A program made the translations under genes and the position numbers. From Peronospora farinosa (Eukaryota > Oomycota > Peronosporomycetes > Peronosporales > Peronosporaceae), in assembly GCA_947646735.1 (NCBI GenBank), contig CANTFK010000991.1:186001-250000 (forward strand): a stretch of 64,000 bases of DNA, written 5' to 3'. Below the pieces are notes generated by a model, which saw only the letters and a list, made by a program, of their open reading frames with translations, searched no databases and was not told where the DNA came from. This document shows positions 2,109-55,498 of the stretch, piece by piece (the first letter of the stretch is position 1; every line of letters starts with the position of its first letter).

Positions 2109-4013
2109 CTAGCCTCCCGTAGCCTTCTTCACGCAGAAGGTTGGACTCGAATGTGGAGAGATACTTTCACGCACATGACCCGTTTTGCGGCGGCCTTCGA
2201 AGAATGCGTCAATAGCTTCGACTTGATCTCGAGGCAACGGCCACTGCCGTGTCACACAATACTTCGACCCTGGCACGAGATCAATCTCGTGCCGAACACC
2301 GCGGTCCGCAGGAAGTTCAGCCGGGATCTTGTCCGGGAACACGTCTGCATACTCACGAGCAATGTCGTAGACAGGGTTACCAGAATCTCGCAGAGCCTCC
2401 CATGACTGTGATGCAAACCTTTCTTCACGCGCAGACTTCGGCTCAGCGCTTCGAGGACGCGCCATATGCTCCTCGTTTGCCACGGTAACCACCTCGTTGG
2501 TAATTAGACACACTTGTTCCACAGTGCCTCCCTTAAGGTCACGTAGTAAATGCTTCCAGGAAAGCCCTGGAAGGCTTGTAATGGAAGACGCATGACGAGG
2601 AGGACTCTCGACCTCGATATATTGGCGCCTTTGTGGACTCCCTTCCACGTACACGATAGCGTGGAAACATTCCAACGCTAAATTCTCGGTGCTGTTGTCC
2701 CCATCGTGCTTCGAGTCACTACTCGAAGCTGGCGAACCGCAGTCAGGTGATAAACCATCACCCTCTAGGCACTGGATGTCGTCATCCAAGATGCCGGAAA
2801 CACTGGACGGGAGTACCCCAAACTCGACCGTCGACACTTGATGCGGGAGCTCCTGCTCGGCCGCCGTAAACCCGTGTGGGAGCCCCTGCTCAACCACAGT
2901 ATGCTCAAGTGGGAACCTCGGTTCGACCACAGTGGGTGATGATGGGAACCCCGGCTCGACCATCATGCTCTCGCGTGGGGACTCCTGTCCGTCCACGTTG
3001 TACTCGTGTGGGAGACCCTGCTCGACCACAATATGCCCATGTGGGAACCTCGGTTCGACCACAGTGGGTGATGATGGGAACCCCGGTTCGACCATCATGC
3101 TCTCGCGTGGGGACTCCTGTCCGTCCACGTCACACTCGCTGGCGAGCTCTTGCTCGTCGTCACAATGCCCTTGTGGGAGCCCCTGCTCGACCACAATAGG
3201 TGCAGATGGGAACCCCGGTTCAACCATTGCATTCACTTGCGGGAACCCCTGTTCAACCGCATTAATGACGCGCGGGAACCCCTGTTCGACCGCGTCGTCC
3301 TCATCGTCCTCTTCGCTCTGTAGCGAGGAGTCACTGTCACTTGTGTCTCGAAGAACAGCACAAGCAGTACAGAGAGGGCCATTGCTCGCTCTGTGCACCG
3401 CCAACGTCGTGGATTCACGATCCACGAATGTGACGTTTGGCCAGTCACTTGGAGATACCAAGAGATGGGTAAACACTTCACTGACATCGAACTTGCGTCG
3501 ACGTCTCACTGATCTGGCTAACCAGTCGATCTGGGGCTTATAACGTGCCAACCATGGCATGCCCAGTATGCAATCGAATGCATAATTCATTGCGATCACC
3601 AAGAAATCATCATTACTGCGAAAGTCATCAAACGTATACGGCAACGACACTTCGCGCCGCGATACGCGGTGTGGTTTCCCGTCAGCTAACTTGACGACGA
3701 CTTGGCCAGGTCCCTCACGGACCTGAATGCTGGGAGGCAGCATCGACAAACAAGATTCACGAAAGAAATTGTTTGTTGCTCCTGAGTCCAAGAGTGCTCG
3801 CAGAGGTCGCCGGACGCCTGCGACATGTAAACTGACAATAATCAGACGTGAATCACCACTCGTAGTGGTGGCATTTAATCGTGCGCGTAGCGCAGGAGGA
3901 CTGGAAGGTTGGGCTGCCACCGGGGGACCCGGACCTCCGTTCCAACCAGTAGGGCGCCCTGCACCTACTGGTCCCGACCGTTTTTTGGACGTCGGCCGGT
4001 ACAGCATCCTCAT
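2109..4013 (-). pseudogene. Protease, repeat linker and RT start of element A
   Basis: The frame starts in a Pro/Gly-rich gag-pol junction (GAGRPTGW) and enters an aspartic protease with an intact active site, [10 protein letters not shown], and the second motif [11 protein letters not shown]. After the protease comes an acidic linker of about 250 residues with a tandem peptide repeat built on VEQGFP and VEPGFP. It ends in the RT N-terminus ([10 protein letters not shown] and [12 protein letters not shown]), where a TAG replaces the expected Trp codon. The gag zinc-knuckle frame overlaps the beginning in another phase, as in Gypsy elements that use frameshifting. The protease would cut Gag and Gag-Pol. 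Confidence 0.88.
2850..3310 (-). repeat. In-frame tandem repeat in the PR-RT linker of element A
   Basis: Peptide units of about 13-14 residues with the core V(E)xGFP or VEQGLP recur about ten times, and a higher-order block ([16 protein letters not shown]) occurs twice. The unit is about 40-45 bp. The repeat keeps the pol reading frame throughout. Open frames on the plus strand here are shadows of the repeat. Confidence 0.8.
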
Positions 4014-7343: not shown

Positions 7344-7941
7344 TGTAGACGGGCACTTCTATGAAGTTGCCTCGTACTACGAGCACACACCTTATGCACA
7401 AGCGAGGAAGCGGTTATACCGTCTTACCTTCGCGTGCGAGGGTGGTTGGGAGGTTGGTCGACTGCTTAAGCAGTCGTACCACCAGTTGCCTCTCGCTTAA
7501 GCGAGAGTGCAACGAACTTCTTAACAAGAAGGCACCGACGTCACGTAGAAGCTTTTCAGCTTCTCGTGCGTGGTGCTTCGGTTTAAGGAAATTCAAGACT
7601 GAGCTATATTTAATTAATTATAACTAAATATATGTTTTAACTACTGATTGGCTATATAGGTATATAGATCGGATACGCGACTCTTTAGAAGCGTATCCTG
7701 TCGCATGATCTTAAATCTAGATTTAAGATCGCAACTGACGTCCTTCTGAGACGTCGCGATGCCTAGCTTCAACTAGCGTCATCCCTTCTCATGTGAATCC
7801 ATCAATGGATATCACATTCACGAGGGTGGATCACATTTGTGTATCGCACCCAAGTGACTGGTCAAAAGTAATCATGGATACTTTTAGACCAAACATTAAG
7901 TATATTACTTAATGTTTACGTGTAACTAGTACCCTGTTACA
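7344..7941 (-). repeat. 3' LTR of element D
   Basis: 598 bp, TGTAACAG...TCTACA on the minus strand. It resembles the 5' LTR closely but has 30 extra bases (7354-7383) near its U5 end. It is rich in short palindromes, for example around 7700-7760. Confidence 0.92.
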
Positions 7942-7958
7942 CCATCCCCCGTTTTAGA
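7942..7958 (-). promoter_or_regulatory. Polypurine tract of element D
   Basis: Minus-strand AAAACGGGGGATGG lies directly before the 3' LTR, where plus-strand DNA synthesis is primed in LTR retrotransposons. The same tract lies before the D2 3' LTR at 52089-52102. Confidence 0.7.
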
Positions 7959-7961
7959 ACG

Positions 7962-9335
7962 ATGTTTACATTTTGTAAAACATCGCCTAAGAGACAGAGA
8001 GACTGGCGAGCCGTTTATAAACGCGCCGCTTTAGTCTGCTCAGTACTCATGCCACCGAAACGTGGTAAGGCTGATGGGTCGCCTGCAAAGGCACCCATGC
8101 AGCCCAGCACTAAGCGCACGCGCCGCGATTTATCGCAGCCGTCGCAAAGTGCGTCAGGCACTGGAGTGGATCTTCCATCTCACGATAATGTGGATGAAGA
8201 TTTATTTCTCATTGTAGATTACAATGAGAGTACGCCATTGCCATTACCCCAAAGTGGAGATGAGCAAAGCGCATTGATGAGACATATGTCCCCATCGTTC
8301 GAGGCACCCGTCCTTGAGGGAGCGTCTATGCTTCCTACAAGCGAAGGTAACGCCTCGTCGCCTGCGCCTACGAGCGCAGCGACTAAGACTGAGCACGCTA
8401 CTTCGAAAGGAGTAGTCGCGACTCAGTCAGATGTGACTCTTCAAGCTGATGTCTTGACAATTCATAATGGAGAGTCAGACTTAGGTGAGTGTGAGCTTAA
8501 AGCTCCACCAAGTACACCTTCGGCCTCACTAGCCCGCCGTCGCGAGGGCGGCTACGTGAGTGGTGGCTTGCCACCAATGCCACCTCCATCTGAGTGGATG
8601 CACTCAGATGGGTCTAGCGCATCGCTTTTGCAGCGTGCCACTATAGACGCTCATAGATTCTATAGCGTCTTTCATTTGTGGAAAAAGCAGGGCAAAGCAC
8701 TTGGTCGTGCTTTCCCAATTCCAGTCGTGCTGCGTTCTAACGAAACAGCCGACGACTATGAAGCTGAACTTCGGCGCCGTGTTACCTTGCATGAAGATGC
8801 AACGAAACAGCGGTCGCAGCGAATCAGCTTCGCCATGAAGCGTGCGCATGAAATTATGGGCGGTAAACGACCCCCAATTAATTCTCGCCACGCTTCTTCT
8901 GCTAGTCCTTCCGGACCTAGCAGAAAGAAGACAGCTGGTGCTGCTTCACATAAGCAGCCACCAGCCCAGGCACGTCAACGCGCAAAGCGTCCACAGGCTC
9001 CCACGAGTCAAAGCTCGTTGGGTAACCCTTCCATTGGACAAGGATTTGGAGCTTTCGCTTCACAAACCGGTGGGCCAACAGCCTTCCAACAAGGAAGCGC
9101 GTATTCCCTTCCGTGTCCACCAACACAGGTGGCGCCCGATAGGAGTGGCGATTACGCCCACCTACTCGCGGCTGCCTACCCTGCTGCTATTCAGTCGCAG
9201 GCTGAGTTCGCTGCGCTGAAGAGGCAGGTGACAGATCTCGAGAGTCACGTCTCGCAACTGAACTCGGATCTGCGCGATGTGAGGACGAGGGAACGTCAGG
9301 GGTATGACCGCCTGAAGACCCGTTTGGACATCTAA
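7962..9335 (+). CDS. Antisense accessory ORF of element D (aORF-D), intact
   Basis: An uninterrupted 457-residue frame on the strand opposite to gag-pol, with its ATG 20 bases inside the 3' LTR edge. Its function is not recognised. The N-terminus is basic (SPKRQRDW and PPKRGK, possibly nuclear-targeting) and is followed by a Ser/Thr/Pro-rich acidic section. Next comes a conserved-looking helical part around residues 225-300 (DAHRFYSVFHLWKKQ, DDYEAELRRRVTLHED, FAMKRAHEIMGGKRP), then a Ser/Gln/Pro-rich stretch. The last 45 residues or so look like a coiled coil (QAEFAALKRQVTDLESHV). Positions 8917-9335 overlap the chromodomain code on the minus strand. D2, E and B carry counterparts in the same place. 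Transcription might start in the LTR reading inwards (inference). Confidence 0.65.
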   Translation: MFTFCKTSPKRQRDWRAVYKRAALVCSVLMPPKRGKADGSPAKAPMQPSTKRTRRDLSQPSQSASGTGVDLPSHDNVDEDLFLIVDYNESTPLPLPQSGDEQSALMRHMSPSFEAPVLEGASMLPTSEGNASSPAPTSAATKTEHATSKGVVATQSDVTLQADVLTIHNGESDLGECELKAPPSTPSASLARRREGGYVSGGLPPMPPPSEWMHSDGSSASLLQRATIDAHRFYSVFHLWKKQGKALGRAFPIPVVLRSNETADDYEAELRRRVTLHEDATKQRSQRISFAMKRAHEIMGGKRPPINSRHASSASPSGPSRKKTAGAASHKQPPAQARQRAKRPQAPTSQSSLGNPSIGQGFGAFASQTGGPTAFQQGSAYSLPCPPTQVAPDRSGDYAHLLAAAYPAAIQSQAEFAALKRQVTDLESHVSQLNSDLRDVRTRERQGYDRLKTRLDI

Positions 9336-9432
9336 GAGCGACTGGTGATGAGAGACCCGCGTCAAGTGCGTAGTCCTCCTCGATCACCGAGTCCTCTATC
9401 GCCTCGTTCATATACGGGGAGCCTCTCGGCAT
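8917..9432 (-). pseudogene. Chromodomain tail of the element D polyprotein
   Basis: After a frameshift at about 9408-9432 the minus strand encodes a Ser/Pro-rich spacer and then a chromodomain (FLVGRLLAHRFVKRKLQILVQWKGYP, then DSWEPVDAL) ending at 8917. Chromodomains at the integrase C-terminus steer insertion to marked chromatin in chromoviruses. A TAG at about 9187-9189 interrupts the spacer; D2 has CAG at that place. All of 8917-9335 is also coding on the other strand. Confidence 0.8.
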
Positions 9433-11641
9433 CCTCGTCGCCTGATCGGCCGCGACGCTCGACTCACAGTCAACGTAACCATCTTCTCGTTAGAATGATG
9501 TGGATATGTGATCTGTTCTGGATCAACATACCGTTTCAGACGACCCACGTAGAATACGGACGGCGTCTTCATATACGGTGGGAGAGTGAGTCTATAATAT
9601 AGGTCTCCAACTTCTTCAACCACTGTAAAGAGCCCAATGAATCGGGGCAATAGCTTAGTGGTACCACCAGGTAGTACAGAAATTGCATGTTTAGGTAGGG
9701 TAGCAGTACTTAATAGCACTTTGTCCCCCACACTAAAGTGTTCATTGTTTTTGCGACCATGCTGGTCTGCATATTGTTTTTGCTTGTTCTGTGCGCTTGC
9801 CATTGCGTCACGGACTCTACGTGAAATGGCGAATTGCTCATTCACGAAGCGCTGAGATTCGCTCACGCTTTTAGCATCCAGCTCGCCTATGACGCCTCCA
9901 AGAGGTCGTTCATGGGTCGACGCTGTTGATAACACTATGGTGTCATCGTCAAGGAGCACTGGCATTTCTTGCCGTGCCTCCTTTGTGACACCTATAGGCG
10001 ACGTGACCACTGCTAAATTAGCAGTGTCACTAGGGCAACCTTGGCCCTCTTTGGCATTCGCACCGAGCGAAGTGAGGGGCCCTCCCCCACTAAGACTCGG
10101 GCTGCGTACAAACGAGACTGGCGTTCGAGGATGACGCAGTCCGTTAATGTAAAACGGTGTTTCACCCGTACTGGCGTGAACACTGTTATTAATAGCGAAC
10201 TCCACGAATGGCAATTGCTTTCTCCATTCTATAGGAGTCGCTATTGTACGCAACACATCCGCCACGACTCGATTGGCCCGTTCTGTTTGGCCATCGGTCT
10301 GGGGATGATCAGCGGTTGACATGTGGAGCTTGCTACCCAGCTGCTCGAACACATGTCGCCAAAAACCCGACGTAAAACGCGGATCCCGGTCCGATACTAT
10401 GGACTCGGGCATCCCGTGTAGTCGATACACGTGATCCAGGAACAAGAGGGCAGCCTCTTTTCCTGAGATCTTCGTGCTACATGGTGCCAAATGCACCATC
10501 TTGCTCAGTCGGTCTACAAAGACGACGAGCCCCGTCCTGCCTTTATGGTCAGGCGGTAAGCCAAACATGAAGTCCAAACTGACCGACTTCCAACATTCAG
10601 TTGGAATCGGCAGTGGCTTCAGTGGCGCACTGTTTGAGGGTGCAGGCTTTATGCGCTGACACTCTTCGCAAGAGCAAATATAGTTGGCCACCCAACGATA
10701 TAGGTGGGGCCACCCCCAAAATTCCTCTGACACTCGTAAGAATGTCGTTTCACGGCCCAGATGCTTACTAGATGGCGGATCATGGCACTCGTGAAGTATC
10801 ATCAGCTTGAGATCTGTGTCATGAGGAACATAGATTCTCGAGGGATCACAGGGTGACAGCTGATGCCATAACAGGCCATCACTGTAACTAAAGCGATTTA
10901 ACTTCGCTTTGAGGTGCGACGGAAGGGTAACCTTTCGTCCACCAAAATGATCCAACAGCAGGCGACAATGTTCGTCCTGACTGTAACACTCCTTGATATC
11001 GGAGGCCATTGAGCTCGTCACATGGTAGGCCTTCATGGCTGCCAAGGTTGACGACTCAACTTGTGCTTTCGCACGAGACACACTATCCTGGTGTCTTGCC
11101 TCGAAGTCTGGTCTGCGCGATAACGCGTCAGCCAAGACATTCGACTTACCCGGCTTATATTCAACTTTGAAATTAAATTCAGAGAAGAATGTTAGCAGTC
11201 TCGCCATTCTCGGCGAGAGGTGCGGTGAATTTATAGCGGTCCGCAGTGATGCGTGATACGTATAAACCACAAAAGGTTCGGTGCCCAAGAGGTGCACCCG
11301 AAACTTTACAAGGGCATACTTAATTGAAAGTAGCTCCTTGTCATGCACAGGGTAATTCAGCTCTGCTGATTTCAAAAGCCGAAACTGATAAGAAATGACA
11401 CGGTCAACGCCGTCGTCATCCTTCTGCATCAGCGCGCTGCCGATTGCAAAATTGCTTGCATCGCAGACGACGCTAAAGGGCTTATCCGCGTCTGGCGCAA
11501 TGCCAAGACCGGTGCCTCTACAAGAGATTGCTTCACTGAAGTTAACGCATCTTCTTGTTCCTTTGACCAAGTCCCTTCTGCATCTTTTTTAAATGGTCAG
11601 ACAACGGCTTGGTCTGCTCCGCATAATTCTTGCTGTACTTA
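9408..11641 (-). pseudogene. RNase H and integrase of element D
   Basis: A 720-codon frame with RNase H (VCDASNFAIGSAL), the HHCC zinc domain (HECHD to CEEC), and an integrase core with a complete triad: SLDFMFGL, VSDRDPRFTS and DGQTERANRV. The GPF/GPY-like segment (LLPRFIGLFTVVEEVGD) follows. In RNase H the expected TDHASL reads TYHASL, which loses an acidic residue retained in D2. The frame is offset from the RT frame by an indel near 11641, shared with D2, and ends at a frameshift before the chromodomain, also shared. Confidence 0.88.
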
Positions 11642-14872: not shown

Positions 14873-15442
14873 TGTAGACGGGCACACACCTTACGCACAA
14901 GCGAGGAAGCGGTCAGACCGTCTTACCTTCGCGTGCGAGGGTGGTTAGGAGGTTGGTCAACTGATTAATCAGTCGTACCACCAGTTGTCTCTCGCTTAAG
15001 CGATATTGCAACGAACTTCTAAGACAAGAAGGCACCGACGTCAAGTAGAAGCTTTTTAGCTTCTCGTGCGCGGTGCTTTGGATTTAGCAAATTCAAGACT
15101 GAGCTATATTTAATTAATTATAACTAAATATATGTTTTAACTACTGATTGGCTATATAGGTATATAGATCGGATACGCGACTCTTTAGAAGCGTATCCTG
15201 TCGCATGATCTTAAATCTAGATTTAAGATCGCAACTGACGTCCTTCTGAGACGTCGCGATGCCTAGCTTCAACTAGCGTCATCCCTTCTCATGTGAATCC
15301 ATCAATGGATATCACATTCACGAGGGTGGATCACATTTGTGTATCGCACCCAAGTGACTGGTCAAAAGTAATCATGGATACTTTTAGACCAAACATTAAG
15401 TATATTTCTTAATGTTTACGTGTAACTAGGTACCCTGTTACA
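14873..15442 (-). repeat. 5' LTR of element D
   Basis: 570 bp, TGTAACAG...GTCTACA on the minus strand, followed by the GTATA duplication. It lacks the 30 bp found near the end of the 3' LTR. Confidence 0.92.
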
Positions 15443-19090: not shown

Positions 19091-21300
19091 CTACAAATCT
19101 CTCTCTCTCGGCCAGGGTCCATCAAGCGGCGTGTGCGCTACAAGAGCCTCTGTCAAGTCCTTCCAGGCTGCACGATCCTGTGCACAAAGGCGAAGGAGGT
19201 ACAGGTCTGGGGCACGTCGAAGGTGATGTCCTGCGGAAAGTGTCTGAAGGTCGGCATCGAGGACCATCGGTAGCGTTAGTCGGCGTCTGCCTCTCCATTT
19301 GCCGGTCTCGCTGGGGTTGAAGAAAGCTTCCATGAACCGGTATGCTGGAATGCATGCAGGTCTGCGGAGGATGTGGCCCTAAAGTCTCCATCGACTGCGA
19401 AGCAAGTGTAATCGGAGTGGCTGCGTCTTCGTACGGTCGTAGAGCTTCTCATTCGAAATCGTGGCTAAATAACGGACTCCGATCACTTTGCGGAGCTGTT
19501 GACGATAAAAACTCTCGAGGCTACGTAGGACGGAATCGGTGAGAGCCCAAATCCCGCAGTTGTAAAGCAGGATCGGCAAGACGTAGCAGTTGTAGAGGCG
19601 CAGGCGCGTAGCTTCCGAGGTCTTCGATGGCCGGAGCTAAACTTTCCACAGGCGGTGTAGTGCAGCAGTCGCTAAATTCTTGCGACGGGAGACGTCTTCG
19701 GCGTCTCCGAGGAGAGAACCTAAATTTACGCGTAATTCGCCAATCCTCATCCTTAGCACGAGTAATCCGGTTGGACAGCGCAGTTGTGCTGAGGTGTACG
19801 ATGGTGTGTTCGGTCTTGGACGTGTTCATCTGAAGTGATCATTTGGCTAGAACGGCAGGGGCTTCAGTCTCGATCAGGGTAGCTATGTCAGCGCTCTGAC
19901 AAATTAAGTCGGCGTCGTCGGCGTACACGATCATGTCGCGAGAAGATCGTGGGGAACGTCGAGCTGGCCGGATAGGTCTCGTAAAGCTGCTTCGAGGTAA
20001 ACAACAAAAAGAACGGGGGAAAGTGAGTCACCTTGGGGAGTACCTGTATTGCTCTCGAACGGGGAAAACAGGCGACTGCCGAGTCGAAGTGAGAGCATTG
20101 TTTCTCGTAGTACTAACCGGATCAGTCAAATTTCGTCGTCATCACGAAGTGGCTTGAGCACGGAGACAAGTTTGTCGCGGTTGACAGTGTCAAAAGCACG
20201 TGAGAGGTCGATTCCAAGAATATGGAAGCGTTCTTGGTATCTCTGAGCGCGTGCTGCTATCCACCTGTGAGCCCACACTGCATCGGCAGTGCTGCGACAG
20301 GGTCTGAACCTGCTTTGGTGCGGGGACAAATATTGTTTGACCTTGGGGGAGATGCGGCGTAGCACCACCAAAGAGATAGCCTTACGAATGCTGTTGAGTA
20401 AGACGATGGGACGAAGGGCGGCACATTGGCCAGCCGGCTTGTTTGGCTTGTGGAGTCCGAGAAAAATCCCGTCGCCCAGGTGGATATTGTCTCCGGTGGC
20501 GAGTCCGTGGTTGATGATGTCAGAGAGTGCTTGAGCTAGTAGCTCTGATCCATACTTGAGTAGCTCTGCAGGAATGGAGTCCGGGCCCGTTGCGCGTCCA
20601 TTGCGTAAGCGGCGGAACGCGCATTCGAGTTCAAAGGCGGTGATTGGATTGTTCAGGGGTCGTTTGACGCCGTCGTCGGCGACGGGCATGCGCGTGCGAT
20701 CGAAGAGCTGGTCCTGGAAGTGTTGCTTGATCTGGATACCTGCTTCTTGGCGGCTGAGTATATATTTACCTGTAGAGTCATGTAACGAGAGTGATGGCAA
20801 GCGCCGTCGGAAAAGGGCTCGCGTGGCTTCAAACATGTGAGTCGAGCGGTTCGACTGTTCAATGATAGCGAGTTTCTCGTCGATGAAATCCCCAGCAAGA
20901 GCTTTGCTGCGTTCTCAAATCCGATGCAGAAGTCGGTTGCGTTTGGTTAGTAGAACATTGACGTCTTGCGTGTGGTCGTTGTAGATGAGCTGCCGAAGTT
21001 GACGTTGTTCGTACGTGAGGCGAGAAAGCTCGGGATCCACCTCTTTGCCATGCTTAACAAGCGGCATGTAGCCAACAGAGTCCGCCGCGGCCTCAAGCGC
21101 AGAGTGAAGAGTGCTCGTACTTAGTTGATTCGTAGTTGTCCCTCTTTGCGGTAAGTCGGCGAGGTACACCTCGAGATATTCGCGGTACATGGTGCGGTAC
21201 GTGCTGTCACGGACAAGAAGATGTTTTGCTAGGCGCGTTTCAGCTTCGCTATCACGTGCTCGTTCTTGACGTCGGCTTAGTCCGCGTAAGGCGTGGAGGT
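19091..21300 (-). pseudogene. Reverse transcriptase and C-terminal part of the non-LTR element
   Basis: From 21300 a linker (RDSTYRTMYREYLEVYLADLPQ) leads to RT motifs NGRATGPDSIPAELL, PIVLLNSIRKAIS, FRPCRSTADAVWAHRW and IDLSRAFDTVNRDK (first catalytic Asp). Past a stop at 20126 follow TGTPQGDSLSPVLF and VYADDADL (near 19925). The tail has WALTDSVLRSLESFYRQQLRKVIG and NPSETGKWRGRRRL. Breaks occur near 20900, 20126, 19830 and 19520. Plus-strand frames in this interval are shadows. Confidence 0.85.
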
Positions 21301-22223
21301 CGAAGTCGAGCGTGACGAGCTTGTGGTCGGACGGTGTGAGAGTGCCCCTTCCAGGATTGCGCGTTACTGCATAATGTCTTCGTCCGTTGGCTGCAGATGA
21401 TGTAGTCGATTTGGTTGAAGATGCAGTGGTCCTTGAGTCATAGTGTCCATGTCGTGATGTTGCGCGCACGTTTCCTAAATGCTGTGCTAGTAATAAACAA
21501 GTCGTTAGCGTCACAGAAAGAAGCGAGAATGTGGCCATTGCGGTTTCGTCGGCCACGGCCCCAATGTTCAAGAAACGATTCATTGTCGCGGCGTTGACCG
21601 ATTTTGGCATTAAAGTCTCCGAGGATGATCGTCGTGTCGCGTTGAGGGAGCTTCGATAGCGCTGTGTTCAGGTCCGCGTAGAAGCCGTCGATTGCTGTAA
21701 CAGGATTTCCACTATGGGGCGCGTATGCGTTCACGATGTTCACTCGCTGGGCTTTGGGAAGACTTAGTTGAAAAATACCAACTCGGTCGGACTGGGCCCA
21801 GTATTTGTAAAGAAACCTGCGTAGATGGGGGGCAACTGCAAAACCAATTCCGTGCCAGCGGTTGGAGCATGGAAGGGTAAGAAGATGATACGTACCGGCC
21901 TTCTGTTTACTTTGAAAGGCAATACGAGTCTCTTGAATCCCCAGGATGTCAATCTTATACGTCAACAGATCTCTGGGAAGGGTCTCATATTGCTTGCGCT
22001 GGGAACCAATGGATTGAACATTAAACGTACCTAATCGGAGATGTCGAGGCTTCGGGCGCGGCTGCGTGCGTCGTGGCGGCTTAGCTGGCGGCTGGGGGTG
22101 AGAGAGGTTAGAAAGAGGTGAGTAGAGGGAGAGGCCCGTCAAAGACTGACGGATGCCGCGAAGCACCAGTCGGAAGAACTGAGCTAGCATCATGCTGGCC
22201 CAAACTTCCCGGGAAGGCGTCAC
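21300..22223 (-). pseudogene. Endonuclease domain of the non-LTR element
   Basis: The frame 21438-22223 begins with a Pro/Arg-rich leader. The endonuclease then shows LGTFNVQSIG (metal-binding Asn), GIQETRI (catalytic Glu), VNAYAPHSG and GDFNAKIG (Asp and Asn). The last motif, SDHKL (catalytic His), lies in the next phase near 21310, so an indel around 21440 breaks the domain. It would nick target DNA to prime reverse transcription. Confidence 0.85.
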
Positions 22224-26599: not shown

Positions 26600-29500
26600 C
26601 TGTTGAATCTTTAGGAGGTAAAGATAAACAGGGCTTAGCTCCAGGTGGTTCTGTGAATGCTTCCATGGAACAAGATTACAAGCCAGGCTTGTTGGTTGTG
26701 TCGGCAACCGTTAAGGGTTTTGAGAAGCCATGGTCAATTCTAATTGACTCAGGGGCGTCAGGAAATTATGTCCGACGTCGTTCCTTGAAGGGAGTCAGCT
26801 GTATGCTGAGGCACTGGAAGCGCAAGAGGGTGACAGTATAACCGTTCGTCTCGCGACAGGTGTACGTGTCACCGTTCCTAAAGTTCCGTTGAACTTAGGT
26901 GTAAAGCTCTTAGACTTCAATAGCGTTGAACGCTATCTTGTCCTAGATTTGGACTCGAGATATGATCTCATTCTCGGTATGGCCTGGCTGGAACGCCATG
27001 AGCCGTGGATCGATTGGAGATCCAAAACTTTAGGCGCAACGCGCAATGTTCCTAGCGAAGCTTTGAAGAGTCATGAAACCACCTTCGCTAGAAAACAAAA
27101 GTGCTATTGGCGCAAGCCATTAACTGAATTAGTGTGCTGGACATTGGAGTGTCTGAGTTGATAAACTGCAACGTTAACAATAATAGTGTCGAGCATAGCT
27201 CAGTGACACCTAGTGGAACGGCACGTACTCCGTTGAGTGATACTCATAGTAATATTGAGACACTGGATGTCGATAATGACATCGGCCATTGCAAAAAGCA
27301 AGCTAAGGTCGATGACCTTGTTAGTGATGCCACCTGTGATATTGACTCGCTGGATGTCGGTAATGACATCAGCTCTCGTATAGAGCAAGCTAAGGTCGAA
27401 GATCCTGTTAGTGATGTAACATGTGACGATGACTCACTGAATGTTAGTGATGACATCGGCTCTCGCATAGGGCAGGTTAAGGTCAAGGAAACCAACGACC
27501 TTAGGAATGATGGTACCCAAGTACTTTACAAATTACGGTCTCGTCAATGAGACGGCAGCGTCGCCAGATGGCGGCTGCGAGACGTAAAGCGTCTGCTTTA
27601 TCACATAGTAATGTCAGTGACCAGTTGTACACCCTGTTAAACGGAGTGACAGGTGATGTAGATGGTGAGGTTGACCTTGAGGCCTTCCCATCATTAAATG
27701 CTCTCTTAGAGCTAAAAGAAATGTATGTGGATGAGTTTCATCAAGCCTTGAAGGCTGGTGTTCTACCCGATATGGTGGTCATTCGACCTAATCTCGAGCT
27801 GAACTCATCCTCGCTTGTCGATGAGGCAGTCCTTGAAGATACAAAGGCAGCACTTAGTGCACGTAGTGGAGCATCTATTCTGAAGAACCCTTCAGATCCC
27901 TACTATCCTTTAGTTGAGGGATTTCAGGACGTGGTGTGTCACGATCCACCGTCGGTTCTACCGCCTGATAGGGATGTACGTCATGAGATTGATTTGGTTC
28001 CTGGAACCAAATGCTGCGTAACACGGCAGTGGACTTTACCCAAAGAACAGTGTGACGTCATTGACGAGTTCTTTCGTGCAAATCATGCGGCAGGTATGGT
28101 GCGCGAGAAGTAGATCTATGCACTCGACACCTACTTTCTGTGTCAAGAAGCCGAAGGGTAAGTGGCGTATTGTTCATGCTTATAATAAGCTCAATGCGGC
28201 CACTATACCTGCACAGACGCCAATACCCAGGAAGGATGTTCTTCAGAACAATATGGTTGGTTGTACCATGTACAGTGCGCTCGACTTAGTCGATGGTTAT
28301 TACCAATTGCTCATGCGAGCTAGCGATATTCCGCTTATTGCTGTTAGTACTCCGAGCGGTATTCTATGGGAGTGGTTGGTGATGCGTAGGGGCTATCGAA
28401 TTCTCCGTCTACGTTTAACCGTTTGGTGACGCAATTGTTTCGACACCATCGAAGTTATGCACATACGTACTTTGATGACATTTTTGTCCATAGCCGTGCT
28501 GAACATGGACGGTCAGATATTGAGAACCATATTGTTCATTTACGAGCTGTGTTCGAGTGCATGCGCACTAATAAGCTATTTGCTAATTTATCTAAGTGCA
28601 TCTTCGGGGCCGAAGAAGTTCCCTTTCTAGGGTGCTTCATTGAGAAGCGAGGACTACGAGCGGATCCCGCCAAAGTCAAAGCCATAGTCATTGGCCTGTT
28701 CCACAATCTCAGAAGGACTTGCGTAAATGGCTTGGCCTTGCCAATTACTTACACAAGTATAGCGAAAATTACGCTGATATGGCTCGGCCATTATCCAATC
28801 TCCTTGAAAAGGATGTGGAATGGTGTTGGCGTGCCGAACACGAAGACGTTTTTAAAGCGGTGAAGGCTAACCTTCTTCATGCTCCTATTTTGGCTTTGCC
28901 AGACCCTGACCGACCGTTTAGCGTCGTCTGTGACGCATCGGACTTTGCCATTGGCAGTGCTCTGTTACAAACATATGATGAAGTCCGTGAGCGTGTGATC
29001 GCTTTTAAATCTCGCCAGCTGAAAGCTGCAGAAAAGAACTATCCCGCTCATGAAAAAGAGCTACTTGCGATGAAGTATTATCTAGTCAAATTCAGAGTTC
29101 ATCTGCTGGCTCAAAGCCTTTTGTGATCTATACCGATCATGCATCCTTACGAACTGCAACCCAGTCTCCGCATCTCTCGCAGAGAATGGCCGGTTGGTTG
29201 TCATTCTTTGCCGAATATAATTTTGAGGTAAAATATAAGCCGAGCAAGCAAAATGCTTTGGCTGATGCGTTGTCACGCAGACCTGACTATGAGCTTGCTC
29301 ATGTTACGACGTTTTCGTCTTCTATTATTGATCTCGTTCGATCGGTGTATGCTAAAGATGATCATTGTATAGAGTTGCTACATGCTCTTGGCAGTGATGA
29401 GTTTAAAGACACGGACATTAAATTGTCGGCACGATTGCGTGCAAGCCTCCATCGATATTCTATCGATGAGGGGCTGTTGTACTATTGTACAGATGTGGCG

Positions 29501-30704
29501 GATCCTCCGCGTACTGTAATTCCTCACGACGAGGAACTGTAGTATCGTATCCTCTATGAGGTACATGACACCGCCGTCGGTGGTCATTTGGGTCGTGAAA
29601 AGACCTATGGGGCAGTATGCCAAAGTTACTGGTGGCCCAAATTATATAAATGGATGAGCACATATGTGCGTACGTGTGAAATGTGTAAACGGGTGAATCG
29701 TTCGCCCCATTCGTCAGCGCCGCTGGATAATTTGCCTATTCCCACTGGGTGCTGGGAATCCATTAGTATGGACTTTGTATTTGGCCTACCGAAAGATTCG
29801 CATGGCAACACAGGTATTGTGGTCTTTGTTGACCGTTTGAGCAAGATGGCTCACTTAGCGGCTGTGCCAGATTCGATCGATGGTATGGGTACAGCGGAGC
29901 TGTTTATCGATCGGGTGTTTCGCCAACATGGCTTGCCAGTGGCAATTGTTTCTGATCGTGATCCGCGTTTTACGAGTAAATTTTGGAAGACCGTTTTTCA
30001 GGTGCTATGTACCCGTTTGGACATATTCACAGCGGATCATCCGCAGACCGATGGTCAAACCGAACGCGTAAATCGCGTTGTTGAAGATATCCTCCGCAGC
30101 GTTTGTGCTGAAACGCCTAAGCGTTGGATCTGTATGCTCCCTGTAGTTTAGTTTGCACTAAATAACTCCTTGCACGCCTCTACCGGCTACACTCCGTTCT
30201 ATGTGAATGGCCTCACACACCCATGCATTCCGTTAGCACTACCACCGAGCGGTTCAAGGCTTGGTGGTGGAGAGGTTGCCGATCGGCTTGCTGATGTCAA
30301 CCCTAATACTGTTACGAAACAGGTGAATACGTTTCTCGCAACGCGACTAAATGTCTTAAGACATGTGCAAGACGCAATGGCTGAAAGCCAAGCCAAACAT
30401 ATATAATGCTAAAGGAAGAAGTTGTATTGATGATTATGAGGTTGAAGACCAAGTATTACTTAATGCAAAAAACCTACCTACCAATGTAGTATCTGCTGTC
30501 TTTAAGACGAAGTTGCGTCCGCGCTTTATCGGACACTTTACGGTCGTGTCCAAGAAAGGCTTAGCGTATACGCTTAATCTGCCGCGCAAATTGCGTACGC
30601 ACCCCGTGTTATACGTCGGCATGCTCAAGCCATATCGGTATCCGTCCCAAGTGAACGCTAAGGCGCTCGCGCCGAGCTCATCGGCACTGCCGCAGGACGG
30701 ATAA
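26600..30704 (+). pseudogene. Pol of element B, multiply broken
   Basis: Order: protease ([10 protein letters not shown] at 26740, [11 protein letters not shown]), a linker with three copies of a roughly 32-residue repeat (27250-27480), RT ([34 protein letters not shown]), RNase H ([25 protein letters not shown]), HHCC and integrase (SMDFVFGLP, VSDRDPRFTS, DGQTERVNRV) and a C-terminal LRPRFIGHFTVV segment. Breaks include a base lost near 26789 (against C), a stop at 27548, and shifts near 28100, 28420, 28700, 29125, 29540 and 30150. No chromodomain is seen; the frame ends at 30702-30704. Confidence 0.88.
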
Positions 30705-30705
30705 T

Positions 30706-31956
30706 TTAAACCAAGAGGTCAAGCTGTCTCTCTACTCGGTTCCAACTCTGCTCTACCGATTTGAGGCGAGTATGCATCGACTGCACAGTCTCACGGAGAG
30801 ACCGCACCTCTTCAAATAGCTCGGCATGAGCTTGAGTCGGTACACCGGCCTCCTCCGGCTTTGCTTGATGGACAGGGAAACCTTCAGTTCCATGTAAAAA
30901 GTCTTCTGCAGAAACGTCGCCGCATGGTCAAAACCAGCATCTGGTGAAGTGGCGGGGATATCCTGAGTCGTGGAACTCATGGGAGTTCGAGGTTCCCCTT
31001 CGTCAGGATTGCCCATTTGCCGTGGACTTTATAGAGCGTCGTGCGCAAGGCCAACCTGTTGGCGATGACGCTTCTCACCAGTAGTGTTGAGGATAGGCGA
31101 GTTAGTGGCCTCGGCCTGTCGTGAGCTCGCGGCTACAGGTGTAGCCGAATCGCTGGAGTGCTGGGTAGCAGACGCATATTGCGTTCGTTGAGACTTCAAC
31201 ATTTTTGGGCCTTCTGTTTAGCGTAATCGTAACGCATTTTTCGTTCGAGACGAACATCTGCCACGTCGGCACTTTCCCGTAGAGCCCACATGCTGCTTAA
31301 ACGTCGCGCATATGCGCCCAGCGGTTAAAAGCCGTGTCTTGTTCTTCCTCGGTTTCCCCCGCGAACAGAAGGATGGGAACGCCCTTTATGGGAGGAACTG
31401 GCGCACCGCGCACTTGCCTGTTGAGGCGTTCCAGGTATTGGATTTGCGTAGTGATATGAGGTTCCAGATAGCGTTGACGAAGGGACGTTCGCGTAGCAGC
31501 ATCCTCGGGTGAAATGGCCTCAGGCCCAATGGCCCAGCCAGAGAGGGAATGACCAGATGCCTTCTTAAGGCGTTATTCCACTGTAGGTGGTTTGAACCTA
31601 TACTGTCGGTGGTCCTGAAGTCTCGCCATGTTCTTCGTCCGGCGCTTGGCACCTTCCTCTTGGTCGATGGTCTGCTGTTGCTGCTCGTCGAGTGGGTTAG
31701 TAACCGTCGCTGCTGACGATAGTTCAGGCGGGTACCGTAACGCTGTTAGCGCATCTGCAGCACCACGTCCTGGAAACAAATTTGGTGCATTATTACTGTC
31801 ATGTTCACCCGTAAGGGTGGTTAAAGGGGACCCATCGGGTTCCACAAAGACGGTGTCACATTCGTAATCAACCGCTTCGTCAAGGTCGCCTTCGATGAGG
31901 TCCCGTAAAGTCTGTGAATCATTGCCAAGAGGCGTCATGTTATGTGCCGTGAACAA
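30706..31956 (-). pseudogene. Antisense accessory ORF of element B (aORF-B), broken
   Basis: Minus-strand frame pieces opposite to gag-pol, between pol and the 3' LTR. The first piece (31573-31956; first ATG near 31938) is acidic, followed after an in-phase stop by RLKKASGHSLSG and EEEQDTAFNRWAHMRD, then in another phase RLSSMWALRESADVADVRLERKMRYDYAKQ. The last piece ends in a coiled-coil-like AELFEEVRSLRETVQSMHTRL, then WNRVERQLDLLV and a stop at 30706-30708, one base from the pol stop. RESADVADVRLERKMRYDYAKQ resembles the helical section of aORF-D. Its function is not recognised. Confidence 0.6.
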
Positions 31957-33903: not shown

Positions 33904-34009
33904 GTGAATGCCAAAAGATCCTTAGAAATTCTAGTTTATATGAGATTTAGTTGATTGTTATAAGTGTCTTGTATGAAACGTTACGCCCATTGTTATAACG
34001 TGGCAAGTG

Positions 34010-34155
34010 TTTGGTTATCTACTGGAGTAAAAACAGGCACGTGTGTGGGTCCGAAAGTACCTGTAGCTCCGAAAGTTTCCGTTAATCACAAATTGGGGGA
34101 ACTTTCAGAGCCACAGGTGCCTTTTTTACTCCGTTGATTACCAGTAGATTACCAC
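34010..34155. repeat. Imperfect foldback upstream of transporter copy 1
   Basis: Two arms of about 55-65 bp pair around a centre near 34088: GGAGTAAAAACAGGCAC with GTGCCTTTTTTACTCC, and GTAGCTCCGAAAGTTTCC with GGAACTTTCAGAGCCAC. The same structure is at about 54729-54873 in copy 2. It could be a small foldback element; no target duplication was identified. Confidence 0.5.
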
Positions 34156-34410
34156 TTTACCGTCGTGAGCTTTCCGGATGATCTCCATAACTTCCTGAGA
34201 AAATTCGAAGCGCACGATTGCGAAGAACAGGCATTCCCTGTCATACGCTTTTAGCAGGAGAATGGCCGAACTCTAGCCCGGGAAAGTCGTTTTCGACTAG
34301 AACGGCTACTAAGGATAGTGGTTTACTTCAAGCTAGACATCTCCTAAGCTAAGCATCTTCAAGGCTACTCGCTACGCGTACTAGCATACTGGCCTTCTAT
34401 CACTTCTATC

Positions 34411-34758
34411 CTACAACCTAGTTTTCTCTATATCGCGATGCCGAGATGACAATGGGGTATTTTTGCTCTCGATGATTATTACAAAGCTGCGCAGGGTTCT
34501 GCCGATCATATCTTGTCCCAAATGCATTGACGAGGATTTTATGTGAGAGTCTGTTCGGTGGATGACAACATCGAAATCATTTGTAGAGCACGAGACTTTC
34601 TCAGATGAATAGTAAGATTCTTGTATAACTTGTGCGTAAGATAAGAATCCTATACAATGAGCATTGGGATCCGTGAAAACCAACTGAGTCGAAACCGTAA
34701 TCGGAACACACGATTTAGCGATAGAGCAATCAATGCCAAAAGCGCAAGTCTCAGACAA
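34411..34758 (-). pseudogene. Unrecognised minus-strand frame, copy 1
   Basis: A 115-codon frame; the same sequence is in copy 2 (55067-55399), where it runs on longer at its C-terminus. One T more in a T run here (near 34424) shifts the last codons, and one base differs near the start in copy 2, so the two copies are broken at opposite ends. Further decayed, gene-like minus-strand sequence seems to continue to about 34150. No family was recognised; it may be a gene relic. Confidence 0.3.
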
Positions 34759-34778
34759 GAGGGCTGCTACAGCCCTCT
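34758..34778. repeat. Perfect 9-bp hairpin upstream of transporter copy 1
   Basis: AGAGGGCTG-cta-CAGCCCTCT; it is also at 55476-55496 in copy 2. Confidence 0.6.
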
Positions 34779-34783
34779 GGTTT

Positions 34784-35396: not shown

Positions 35397-35407
35397 CACT
35401 TTTGCAA
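35395..35407 (+). promoter_or_regulatory. Candidate initiator of transporter copy 1
   Basis: TTCACTTTTGCAA resembles the oomycete initiator pattern (TCAYTYY followed by CAW). It lies 89 bases before the chosen ATG and is kept in copy 2 (55499-55511). Confidence 0.3.
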
Positions 35408-35495
35408 CAGCGCCAGAGTCCCGATTTCAAATAGCTGTGAAAGTCGAGTTCGGTCCGCCTGGAGGGTTAAGTATTCGAAGTTCTGCGGCGAAAAG

Positions 35496-43246: not shown

Positions 43247-43914
43247 ATGGATGACATAGGAACTAGAAATGATGCCTATGTAACCAATTTAAAGCATAAA
43301 ATCAGGAGATGTCCTTCACGCTACATCAGTGCACGTGGTGTCGGTCCTTCTGTCGATACTAATGCACATGGTGTCGGTTCTTCTGTTGACACCACGCAGG
43401 AGGCTTTAGACCGCAAAGTATTGCGTCTTGCTCCTGATCGCAAGCCGTGGATGCTATCTCAGCATCTGCTTGATCGTTGGTCTGGGAAGACCAACGAAAG
43501 GTTCCTCATACCGTTGTGTGATGCGTCAAAGCTTCACGGCCTTGACGCCAGTGAGAAGAACATTTGCACTGAGAACGATTATTACATCGATGTATTTCTT
43601 AAGCATCGATGGTGTGGCCCACACAAAAAGCGTGAGGCTGACGCGTTCCTCCATCTTGGAACGCGTTTATCACCAACGTCTTAAACGTTGGGAAAGAGGC
43701 TTGGTTTCATAGACTTTATGCTAGCCGCAATAAGTTTGAAAAACGAAGTACGTCCGGTGCATGCTATCGTTTGCACCGGTTATCTAGAGAGGCAGGCCTG
43801 TTATGCCTCTCTTAGAGCAACCCATGCCCGAGGTGTCTGAGCACCTCTTAAAGAGCGCCTAAGGAGGCTTACCTCCTTACTGAGCCCTGGTGGAGGGCTC
43901 GCATCTCTTCTGAT

Positions 43915-44610
43915 ATGCGTGAAGGGATTGCTACTTTGCAGATTCTTTACGAAGTCGCTGGGCGCTCGTTTTCCGATGATTCTTCTTCACCATCGGTTAT
44001 GCCTTGTTGTACTGTTCGACAAGGCCGGGGACGTCGGCCATCAGTTGGGCCCGAGGTTCCCAGCAATCCGCCGAAGGAGGATAGCCACGCCATCGGACGA
44101 GATAACTCGTCCGACGTCCCTTCACCTCGCAATGAATTAGCAAGTGTTCCACGACGAAGCGCTTCCCGCCATGCGAGTCCACCAACGGATGCGGTAGTGG
44201 AGGGAAAACCCTGTCCGATTCTTTCATCGGACTTGTCTGCTGAGTTAGACGGGTTTGCCCGTGTAACTCGTGAGCTACGTTGTGATGTTGATCACGAACG
44301 GGATAAGCGTCGCCTCTTCGAGGACATTGTGCGACAGCTTGAATTTGACCATGAGAAGTCTCGGGCAAACAATGCTGTCGCACTGTTGGAGAATGAACGG
44401 CGATATCATTATCTAAGTAACGAGCTGGCGACAGCTCGTCAGGAGATCGTCCGATATCATGGGAAGATATCATCTCTACACGACCAGGTATTGAACCTGG
44501 TTCGTGACAACAAGAATCTGAAGGGAATTCTGGAGAATAATGGCTATCTTCGTCGTTCGAAGAAGCCACGTATTGAACGTACAGACAAAGACGTTCCACG
44601 TAAAACGTAG
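43915..44610 (+). CDS. Antisense accessory ORF of element E (aORF-E)
   Basis: A 231-codon frame opposite to the E chromodomain tail. After a Pro/Ser/Arg-rich N-half it has a long coiled-coil-like section of about 90 residues (ELDGFARVTRELRCDVDHERDK, SNELATARQEIVRYHGKISS) and a basic end (RRSKKPRIERTDKDVPRKT). The position relative to pol and the coiled-coil C-half match aORF-D. An N-terminal extension may lie at 43247-43700 in broken phases (DYYIDVFLKHRW, KKREADAFLH). Its function is not recognised. Confidence 0.5.
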   Translation: MREGIATLQILYEVAGRSFSDDSSSPSVMPCCTVRQGRGRRPSVGPEVPSNPPKEDSHAIGRDNSSDVPSPRNELASVPRRSASRHASPPTDAVVEGKPCPILSSDLSAELDGFARVTRELRCDVDHERDKRRLFEDIVRQLEFDHEKSRANNAVALLENERRYHYLSNELATARQEIVRYHGKISSLHDQVLNLVRDNKNLKGILENNGYLRRSKKPRIERTDKDVPRKT

Positions 44611-45109
44611 GATGCGTACGCATCCTGCGTGGAAACTCGATCGTGTATGCGTTGCCTAGGCGGCGCAATACACGAAACGGACCGATGTACTTGGGCAACA
44701 ATTTATTGCTGCCTACGATAGTCACTACATGTTTAGGTAGGTTTACTGTTGACAGTAAAACAAAATCACCTTCAATAAATGTTTGAGCATTTGCCCTTCC
44801 ATTATTGTCTGCGTTTCGCTTTTGCTTATCCATCGCTTCTGCGATGGACTCTTGCACGAAACGGATTAACGAATCACGAGTCAGCAGGAAATCCTCAGCT
44901 GACTCGTTGCTTTTGGCTGCAGTGCATTGTGAGTGCACTGCAGAGGTACGTGTTACTAACTCAGCGAGAACATTACTGTTCTCACTTGTGATACCTCGAA
45001 CGATGCTGATATCTTCAGCATCGTTATCAGTAAGAGCGCCATCGCTCTTACTTTCTTCCTCTTCACCGAAGTCGAATGGTACGACTTCGGTTACTTTCGC
45101 GTCGACCAT
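43997..45109 (-). pseudogene. Pol C-terminus with chromodomain, element E
   Basis: A 370-codon frame with LLPKYIGPFRVLRRLGN (GPF-type segment), FYVERL, a Ser/Pro/His-rich spacer and a chromodomain at the end (KRFVVEHLLIHCEV, SYLVRWRGYPPSADCWEP, DVPGLVEQY). It is open over its whole length and stops at 43997. About 614 bp overlap the plus-strand frame 43915-44610. Confidence 0.82.
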
Positions 45110-50214: not shown

Positions 50215-51127
50215 TTATCCTACGTAAAGTCCGTGACGTAATGGCAAGCGCAAAGGACAAACAAAAAATATATTTAGACCAGCATGGTCGCAAAAACAAT
50301 GAACACTTTAGTGTGGGGGACAAAGTGCTATTAAGTACTGCTACCTTACCTATACATGCAATTTCTGTACTACCTGGTGGTACTACTAAGCTATTGCCTT
50401 GATTCATTGGGCTCTTTACAGTGGTTGAAGAAGTTGGAGACCTAAATTATAGACTCACTCTCCCACCGTATATGAAGACGCACCCCGTATTTTACGTGGG
50501 TCGTCTGAAACGGTATGTTGATCCAGAACAGATCACATATCCACATCATTCTAACGAGAAGATGGTTACGTTGACTGTGAGTCGAGCGTCGCGGCCGATC
50601 AGGCGACGAGGATGCCGAGAGGCTCCCCGTATATGAACGAGGCGATAGAGGACTCGGTGATCGAGGAGGACTACGCACTTGACGCGGGTCTCTCATCACC
50701 AGTCGCTCTTAGATGTCCAAACGGGTCTTCAGGCGGTCATACCCCTGACGTTCCCTCGTCCTCACATCGCGCAGATCCGAGTTCAGTTGCGAGACGTGAC
50801 TCTCGAGATCTGTCACCTGCCTCTTCAGCGCAGCGAACTCAGCCTGCGACTGAACAGCAGCAGGGTTGGCAGCCGCGAGTAGGTGGGCGTAATCGTCACT
50901 CCTATCGGGAGCCACCTGTGTTGGTGGACACGGAAGGGAATACGCGCTTCCTTGTTGGATGGATGTTGGACCACCGGTTTGTGAAGCGAAAGCTCCAAAT
51001 CCTTGTCCAGTGGAAGGGTTACCCAACGAGCTTTGACTCGTGGGAGCCTGTGAACGCTTTGCGTGTCGACTTGCCTGGGCTGGTGGCTGCTTATGTGAAG
51101 CAGCACCAGCTGGCGTCTTTCTGCTAG
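50211..51127 (+). pseudogene. C-terminal tail and intact chromodomain of D2
   Basis: 50211-50402 and 50421-50636 give DKVLLSTATLP and the MKTHPVFYVGRLKRYVDPEQ segment, separated by a TGA in place of the expected Arg codon. After the family-wide shift, 50612-51127 (171 codons) is open through a spacer to a chromodomain (LVGWMLDHRFVKRKLQILVQW, DSWEPVNALRVDLPGL). The last 419 bp overlap the antisense frame. Confidence 0.84.
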
Positions 51128-52082
51128 GTCCGGATGGACTAGAAGAAGAAGCGTGGCGAGAATTATTTGGGGGTCGCTTACCGCCCATAATTTCATGCGC
51201 ACGCTTCATGGCGAAGCTGATTCGCTGCGACCGTTGTTTCGTTTTATCTACATGCAACGTTACACGGCGCCGAAGTTCAGCTTCATAGTCGTCGGCTGTT
51301 TCGTTAGAACGCAGCACGACTGGAATTGGGAAAGCACGACCAAGTGCTTTGCCCTGCTTTTTCCACACGGGAAAAAAGACGCTATAAAATTTATGAGCGT
51401 CTATAGTTGCACGCTGCAAAAGCGCTGCACTAGACCCATCCGAGTTGATCCACTCAGATGGAGATGACATTGGTGGCAAGCCACCACTCACGTAGCCCCC
51501 TCGCGACGGCGGGCTAGTGAGGCCGAAGGTGTACTTGTGGAGCTTTAAGCTCACACTCACCTAAGTCTGACTCTCCATTATGGATTGTCAAGACATCAGT
51601 ATGAGGAGTCACATCTGACTGATTCGCGACTACTCCTTTCGAAGTAGCGTGCTCAGTCTTAGTCGCTGCGCTCGTAGGCGCAGGCGACGAGGTTTTACCG
51701 TCGCTTGTAGGAAGCATAGACGCTCCCTCAAGGACGGGTGCCTCAAATGATGGGGACATATGTCCCATCAATGCATTATGCTCATCGCCACTTTGGGGTG
51801 ATGGCAATGGCGTGCTCTCATTGTAGTCTACAAAGAGAGATGGATCTTCATCCACATTATCGTGAGATTGAAGATTCACCTCAGTGCCTGAAGCACTTTG
51901 CGACGGCTGCGATAATCGCGGCGCGTGCGCTTAGTGCTGGACTGCATGGGTGCCTTTGCAGGCGACCCATCAGCCTTACCACGTTTCGGTGGCATGAGTA
52001 CTGAGCAGACTAAAGCGGCGCGTTTATAAACGGCTCGCCAGTCTCTCTGTCTCTTAGGCGATGTTTTACAAAATGTAAACAT
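50709..52082 (-). pseudogene. Antisense accessory ORF of D2, frameshifted
   Basis: Counterpart of the intact 457-codon frame in D, in three phases: 51876-52082, 51514-51879 and 50709-51560. Breaks are a small deletion near 51885 and a shift near 51540. Middle and C-terminal sections match aORF-D with many conservative changes (DKTKQRSQRISFAMKRAHEIM, LKRQVTDLESHVSQLNSDL). Confidence 0.7.
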
Positions 52083-55399: not shown

Positions 55400-55498
55400 C
55401 TGAGTCGAAACCGTAATCTGAACACACGATTTAGCGATAGAGCAATCAATGCCAAGAGCGACAGGTCTCAGACCAGAGGGCTGCTACAGCCCTCTGGT

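What the first reader, a model, noticed from the sequence alone, without database searches (positions are those of the whole stretch)
7962..9335. An antisense reading frame shared by three Gypsy families
Element D has an intact 457-codon frame on the strand opposite to gag-pol, starting 20 bases inside its 3' LTR. B (30706-31956), E (43915-44610) and D2 (50709-52082) have counterparts at the same place and orientation. All end in a coiled-coil-like segment running towards the pol stop; in B the two stops are one base apart. B and D also share a helical section (RESADVADVRLERKMRY against NETADDYEAELRRRVTL). Antisense ORFs near the 3' LTR are known from some plant Gypsy elements; I know of no such gene in oomycete elements, and its role (regulator, RNA-binding or structural) is open.
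Basis: partly seen in the sequence, partly recalled or inferred. Interest (0 to 1): 0.87.

Follow-up and report, generated by a model that had tools for sequence, protein, structure and literature searches.

The report
Antisense gene in downy-mildew retrotransposons
Several families of jumping genes in a downy mildew carry an extra gene written backwards against their main genes; it is conserved and under selection, so it very probably makes a useful protein.

Summary
D's antisense frame exists (457 codons), but the conserved start is at 8049, not 7962, and the window copy stops early: relatives run to about 480 aa. Families D, B and E, and a fourth, A, just left of the window, have antisense frames of about 430-590 codons in many copies, starting at the 3' LTR edge. 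In intact copies the second half overlaps the pol C-terminus, in one phase in all four. The part free of pol is under purifying selection: dN/dS D 0.51, B 0.18, E 0.55; shifted forward frames 0.97-3.4; A untested. Inside D's overlap the constraint changes strand: pol over the chromodomain, the antisense frame over the coiled coil and tail; for B and E this is not settled. Relatives occur in other Peronospora, Hyaloperonospora and Albugo. D and B share a core domain; E and A are not shown to be homologous to them. No known domain or fold was found. Most likely a nuclear coiled-coil regulator; function is inferred, expression untested.

The parts
7379..7941 (.). 3' LTR of element D (partner 14878-15442); ends ...GTTACA
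7942..7955 (-). polypurine tract of element D, seen as its complement on the + strand
   Evidence: read from the sequence; inferred from its place next to the LTR
7942..8048 (+). leader of 107 nt between the LTR edge and the conserved ATG
8049..9335 (+). antisense gene of D from the conserved ATG (MPPKRG...) to the early stop of this copy
   Evidence: homologous proteins
9336..9485 (+). continuation of homology (end of the coiled coil and Arg/Ser/Pro-rich tail) beyond the early stop
8049..8918 (+). codons 1-290, free of pol in intact copies; dN/dS 0.51 among 25 copies
8625..8855 (+). central helical segment (aa 193-269 of P0001, model confidence low to middling) containing IPVVLRSNET; homologous to a segment of the B protein
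9144..9353 (+). predicted long helix, coiled coil (aa 366-435 of P0001); the window copy stops inside it
8917..9483 (-). pol C-terminus with chromodomain region, opposite the second half of the antisense gene; out of frame with upstream pol in this copy
50559..51995 (-). antisense gene of copy D2, frame-broken
30661..31938 (-). antisense gene of B, decayed copy (several frames)
43325..44607 (+). antisense gene of E: homology in two frames, 43325-43654 and 43654-44607; the part from 43915 is an open ORF
43931..45109 (-). pol C-terminus of E with SH3-like and chromodomain, overlapping the E antisense gene

Best explanation
It is a true protein-coding accessory gene of a group of chromodomain-bearing Gypsy elements in downy mildews. 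It is read on the strand opposite to gag-pol, starts at the inner edge of the 3' LTR (ATG about 95-111 nt inside in D, B and E, about 13 nt in A if its first ATG is used), and overlaps the pol C-terminus tail to tail. Shown: the frames, their conservation, purifying selection (D, B, E), the overlap, the coiled-coil prediction. Inferred: an antisense promoter in or beside the 3' LTR makes its mRNA, and the protein enters the nucleus (basic clusters), oligomerises through the coiled coil, and regulates the element's own expression or RNA in trans, comparable in role to HTLV-1 HBZ or the nuclear Grande gene-23 protein. Confidence that the gene is real and selected: about 0.95; that it is a nuclear regulator: about 0.45.
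For: Many open copies (35 of 93 scored D places have no stop in the aligned stretch, my count; many rows also for E, B and A). Among forward frames only the real one has dN/dS clearly below 1 (D 0.51 against 1.00 and 1.25; B 0.18 against 3.4 and 1.9; E 0.55 against 0.97 and 1.17). Variants shared by three or more D copies are biased to codon position 3 (12/8/31, p 1.4e-4), all variants are not (87/82/100, p 0.38), as expected for selection before and neutrality after insertion. Strand switch of constraint in D's overlap. Relatives in named other species, e.g. P. matthiolae 48% over 99% and P. destructor 41% over 99% for B, P. matthiolae 43% over 96% for E. Coiled coil with blocks above pLDDT 90 in D and E. 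Basic clusters, and no hydrophobic stretch typical of a membrane span.
Against: No transcript, protein or localisation data. No domain or fold match gives a function. A core-promoter match (INR+FPR-like) is found only in the one B copy scanned (shuffle fraction 0.012), weak in E (0.23-0.24 in three copies), none in D (0.55-0.94 in five copies). No bZIP match. Much of D is predicted disordered (mean pLDDT 47.7). E's codon-position bias alone is not significant (p 0.14); its first half and D's stretch 96-190 show no constraint. Reverse frames of the free regions are also below 1 in part (D 0.74, 0.61; B 0.26; E 0.86, 0.58), which for the 0.61, 0.26 and 0.58 frames is expected from shared third positions. 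Selection in A untested.
Confidence: 0.5

Rival explanations
1. RNA-handling factor: the protein coats or exports the element's genomic RNA from the nucleus, like Rev in role or CERV of Cer1, using basic or Arg/Ser arms and coiled-coil multimerisation.
For: Arg/Ser-rich tail in D (13 RS/SR dipeptides in the protein) and strongly so in A (26); D's tail is under antisense-frame constraint (0.34); precedent of CERV, a nuclear retrotransposon accessory protein needed for gRNA export (PMC10309623, abstract and outline read).
Against: CERV is made from a spliced mRNA. B has few RS dipeptides (3). In A the SR stretch overlaps pol, and one pair of copies does not show which strand is selected.
Confidence: 0.22
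2. Partner of the chromodomain/integrase: a nuclear protein that helps targeting or tethering of the pre-integration complex.
For: The gene overlaps the pol C-terminus in all four families in one phase; oligomerising nuclear-type protein.
Against: Overlap is only position; no interaction evidence. Many retroelements with a chromodomain manage without such a gene (recalled).
Confidence: 0.12
3. The antisense frame is a by-product of pol coding on the other strand, or of chance.
For: The second half does overlap pol, and over the chromodomain the constraint is on pol (D codons 291-340: pol 0.31, antisense 2.32; B codons 326-360: all changes synonymous in pol). In the coiled-coil part of B and E neither strand stands out (B 0.61 and 0.57, E 0.53 and 0.75, wide intervals).
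Against: The first 290 codons lie outside pol and have dN/dS 0.51 in D and, for the matching part, 0.18 in B; D's coiled coil is constrained in the antisense frame (0.25) and not in pol (1.93); open frame far beyond chance.
Confidence: 0.02
4. The function is antisense RNA (silencing or self-limitation), not protein.
For: Antisense transcripts of retrotransposons can act as RNA (discussed in PMC7264820).
Against: Codon-level selection in free regions of D, B and E and protein conservation. An RNA role in addition is not excluded.
Confidence: 0.05
5. An envelope-like or membrane protein in antisense.
For: Position between pol and the 3' LTR.
Against: Highest 19-residue hydropathy is 0.48-0.82 in the five A, B, D and E proteins measured; D and E models show only helices and disorder.
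Confidence: 0.02

Closest known systems
Antisense additional ORFs between pol and 3' LTR of plant Gypsy elements (Grande gene 23, RIRE2, Retand ORF4, PvRetro13), also Boty of Botrytis
   Same: Position, orientation, presence in many copies and several species, unknown function; nuclear location reported for Grande (PMC7264820, parts 1-2 of 3).
   Different: No Pfam match to the Retand TRP28 domain here; no relatives outside oomycetes among the named hits; [quoted passage not shown]
HBZ of HTLV-1
   Same: Gene on the antisense strand; coiled-coil segment near the C-terminus; nuclear role proposed here.
   Different: HBZ is a basic leucine zipper factor of a retrovirus of people (starts of abstracts in a listing; structure recalled); no bZIP match here.
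CERV of Cer1 (C. elegans)
   Same: Accessory nuclear protein of an LTR retrotransposon, called novel by its authors.
   Different: Made from a spliced mRNA, needed for gRNA export (abstract).
Chronos group of oomycete Ty3/Gypsy elements
   Same: Oomycete Gypsy with chromodomain at the end of pol (PMC5348765, passages).
   Different: Chronos has a second, plant-type RNase H; none was seen in the D pol piece scanned. The word antisense does not occur in that paper (count).

Membership tests
Antisense aORF between pol and 3' LTR (aORF-3R) | Located at the 3' LTR, opposite to gag-pol | tested here: met
   LTR pair tested for D and B, edge inferred by likeness in E and A
Antisense aORF between pol and 3' LTR (aORF-3R) | Present in many copies and conserved in other species | tested here: met
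   11, 25, 26 (other species for A not searched)
Antisense aORF between pol and 3' LTR (aORF-3R) | Own antisense transcript and promoter | not testable with these tools
   only a motif scan: B good, E weak, D none
Retand antisense ORF (TRP28, PF04195) | TRP28 domain | tested here: not met
   no PF04195 in Pfam scans of D, B and E proteins; A not scanned
HBZ-like antisense bZIP factor | bZIP domain | tested here: not met
   no bZIP family (A not scanned); coiled coil alone
Envelope-like third ORF | Membrane-spanning segment | tested here: not met
   maximum 19-residue hydropathy 0.48-0.82
Envelope-like third ORF | Sense orientation | tested here: not met
Chromodomain-bearing Gypsy element | Chromodomain at the pol C-terminus | tested here: met
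   PF00385 in E; D and B pol C-termini align to E's
Chronos | Second (archaeal/plant-type) RNase H | tested here: inconclusive
   not seen in the 720-aa D pol piece; other families not scanned, no RT tree made

The most novel reading that the evidence does not exclude
A single ancient antisense gene was present in the ancestor of four or more oomycete Gypsy families (same place, same overlap phase, coiled coil) and has been kept from Albugo to Peronospora as an HBZ-like trans-regulator driven from the LTR, while its protein diverged beyond recognition; the overlap has split the DNA into stretches ruled by one strand or the other, so that part of the pol linker is shaped by the antisense protein.
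Probability: 0.3. Interest if true: 0.82.

Novelty: new variant of a known kind. Interest (0 to 1): 0.66.

Why it matters
Antisense accessory genes of retrotransposons are known mostly from plants, and their function is unknown. Here is a set in oomycetes with codon-level evidence of selection and, in one family, a clear division of constraint between two overlapping strands, in elements with hundreds of matched places in one genome. It gives an independent lineage in which to ask why Gypsy elements, like deltaretroviruses, keep a gene facing backwards at the 3' LTR. It also warns annotators: in Hyaloperonospora such proteins are listed as an RxLR effector candidate or as a core-binding-domain protein.

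Tried and rejected

Literature: the titles and abstract starts listed by searches (20 of 34 papers; 15 of 319; 6 of 6; 12 of 86; 12 of 43) show no paper on antisense ORFs in oomycete Gypsy elements; unlisted papers were not seen. Gomez-Orte 2013, Steinbauerova 2011 and the Boty papers were not read.

Full report
What is there. Element D (LTRs 7379-7941 and 14878-15442) has gag-pol on the minus strand and an open frame 7962-9335 on the plus strand. The longest stop-free run there, 463 codons, was never approached in 2000 dinucleotide-model resamples (maximum 289). The ATG at 7962 lies 20 bp past the LTR edge, beside the complement of the polypurine tract, and is lacking in 5 of 8 other copies printed; all 9 sequences printed have an ATG at the place of window 8049 (one codes MSPK in place of MPPK; the 8 were taken from 22 of 25 copies with a recognised start). 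The window copy ends early: its best relative (P0001, 481 aa, labelled Peronospora effusa) continues with an Arg/Ser/Pro-rich tail, and translated homology in the window runs to 9485.

How widespread. In the window's own genome (46.9 Mb), one search scored 93 of 1236 candidate D places; 35 of these 93 have no stop in the aligned stretch (my count). E gave 154 matches from 150 scored places, more than a dozen with open frames above 550 codons; B gave 150 matches from 150 scored places, more than 30 with an open frame of 443; a fourth family, A, whose 3' end lies just left of the window (L087), gave 141 matches from 120 scored places, many with open frames of 460-502. These are lower bounds, and some rows are two pieces of one copy. 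Long open examples: D L002, 481 aa from the conserved start; B L031, 427-433 aa; E L023, 572-590 aa; A L088 and L089, 479 and 481 aa. The window's B copy has six internal stops in the quoted frame, and in E only the part from 43915 is an open ORF.

Other species. Protein searches found relatives of D in P. effusa and P. farinosa and in records without an organism name (sources ena, lgn) at 45-86% identity (15 hits); of B in P. effusa, P. matthiolae, P. destructor, Hyaloperonospora arabidopsidis, H. brassicae and Albugo laibachii (73 hits); of E in P. effusa, P. matthiolae and H. arabidopsidis (26 hits). The six best matches of the Albugo protein among the proteins held here are 42-48% identical, so it is no copy of one of them. 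Among the hits with a name shown none was Phytophthora; the searches see only relatives sharing short words and scored about 8000 candidates each. The window's host is probably a Peronospora near P. effusa (inference).

Geometry. Of 25 D copies with a long open frame (457-518 codons), 17 have a pol frame ending opposite antisense codon 290.3; one gives 299.3 because its start was not recognised; in 7 no long pol frame was found. So codons 1-290 are free of pol and 291-481 overlap its C-terminus with the chromodomain. B and E are arranged alike. Pol codon position 1 faces antisense position 1 in D, B, E and A: one phase in four families (chance 1 in 27 if phases are equally likely, which is not shown). 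In this phase the wobble base of one frame faces the middle base of the other. All four have ...TTACA followed by a C-rich stretch, the LTR edge and purine-tract complement (D and B by LTR pairs; E and A by likeness). The ATG follows after 107 nt in D, about 110 in B, about 95 in E, but only about 13 in A if its first ATG is used, so in A the transcript would have to begin inside the LTR (inference).

Selection. Pairwise Nei-Gojobori counts, pooled, with codon bootstrap. D: 41 loci examined, 25 used, 16 dropped; free region dN/dS 0.51 (0.37-0.71), shifted forward frames 1.00 and 1.25, reverse frames 0.74, 0.61, 1.16. B: 14 given, 5 kept; free region 0.18 (0.10-0.30), shifted forward 3.4 and 1.9, reverse 1.66, 0.26, 3.03. 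E: 12 given, 9 kept; free region 0.55 (0.35-0.91), first half 1.15, second 0.30; shifted forward 0.97 and 1.17, reverse 0.86, 0.58, 1.77. The low reverse frames (0.61, 0.26, 0.58) are those whose third positions coincide with the real frame's. In D, variants shared by three or more copies fall 12/8/31 on codon positions 1/2/3 (p 1.4e-4), all variants 87/82/100 (p 0.38); B all 10/8/34 (p 6e-6); E all 24/20/34 (p 0.14). The D stretch 96-190 shows no constraint (0.92). Copies are related, so the intervals are rough.

Strand switch in the overlap. D antisense codons 291-340, opposite the chromodomain: antisense 2.32, pol 0.31. Codons 341-395: both near 0.8. Codons 396-440 (coiled coil): antisense 0.25 (0.11-0.55), pol 1.93 (0.77-8.05). 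Codons 441-481 (tail): antisense 0.34, pol 1.43. B codons 290-360: no synonymous change in the antisense frame, pol 0.20 and 0; B 361-427: 0.61 and 0.57, undecided. E over the chromodomain: pol 0.26 and 0.32, antisense 3.4 and 0.79, wide intervals; E 446-572: 0.53 and 0.75, undecided. So the switch is shown in D alone. There it is the strongest evidence that the antisense coiled coil is a product in its own right.

The protein. D model: mean pLDDT 47.7, a helix 366-435 with blocks at 92-94, helices 193-269 at low to middling confidence. E model (P0094): mean 59.2, a helical domain about 192-310 at 71-90, a helix 453-552 mostly at 89-98. Heptad scores agree for D, B and E, less for A. D and B profiles: whole length probability 95%; free region alone probability 63%, score 39.5 against a best of 20.4 in 30 shuffles, centred on IPVVLRSNET / VPILLFAGET. 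A short VDY-acidic motif near the N-terminus occurs in D, B and E by eye; its score is within the null. By BLASTP the antisense proteins show no good likeness between families (best E-values 0.36, 0.02, 0.72), while integrases are 56-60% identical: the gene evolves much faster than pol. No Pfam, PDB or fold match beyond generic coiled coils.

Likely working. Shown: gene, selection, overlap, coiled coil. Inferred: a promoter in or beside the 3' LTR reading inward on the opposite strand. An oomycete INR+FPR-like site lies at -77 in the one B copy scanned (2 mismatches, shuffle fraction 0.012); E is weak, D has none (motif class in PMC3599244, passages read; exact consensus recalled). Basic clusters suggest the nucleus. 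The best guess is a nuclear, self-associating regulator of the element; an RNA-handling role is the main rival because of Arg/Ser-rich stretches in D and A.

Known relatives. [quoted passage not shown] PMC11963269, passages). No listed paper of searches describes them in oomycetes. It is therefore filed as a new variant of a known kind: proteins without known relatives outside oomycetes, overlap with the chromodomain, and in D a strand switch of constraint.

Noticed in passing
33904-38831 and 54622-58944: Near-identical duplicated blocks (98.5-99.4%) each holding an open frame that looks like a sugar transporter (35157-37067, 55529-57178).
   Followed up: no
20126-22223 (-): Frames that look by eye like a non-LTR element: endonuclease-like and reverse-transcriptase-like ORFs.
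   Followed up: no
61707-62129 and 27249-27489: Tandem repeats in pol of the B family, period near 86 bases, coding [21 protein letters not shown] units.
   Followed up: no
2845-3252: Repeats inside element A's gag-pol coding [12 protein letters not shown] units; the other strand is open there too (2932-3543).
   Followed up: no
L087 1425-2867 (left of the window): A fourth Gypsy family with antisense frames rich in Arg-Ser repeats; many open copies elsewhere in the genome; its first ATG lies about 13 nt from the presumed LTR edge.
   Followed up: partly
P0114 and P0103: Proteins of this retrotransposon gene are labelled RxLR effector candidate and core-binding-domain protein in Hyaloperonospora; probably misannotation.
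   Followed up: partly
P0089: An E-type protein with an internal duplication of its acidic N-terminal segment.
   Followed up: no
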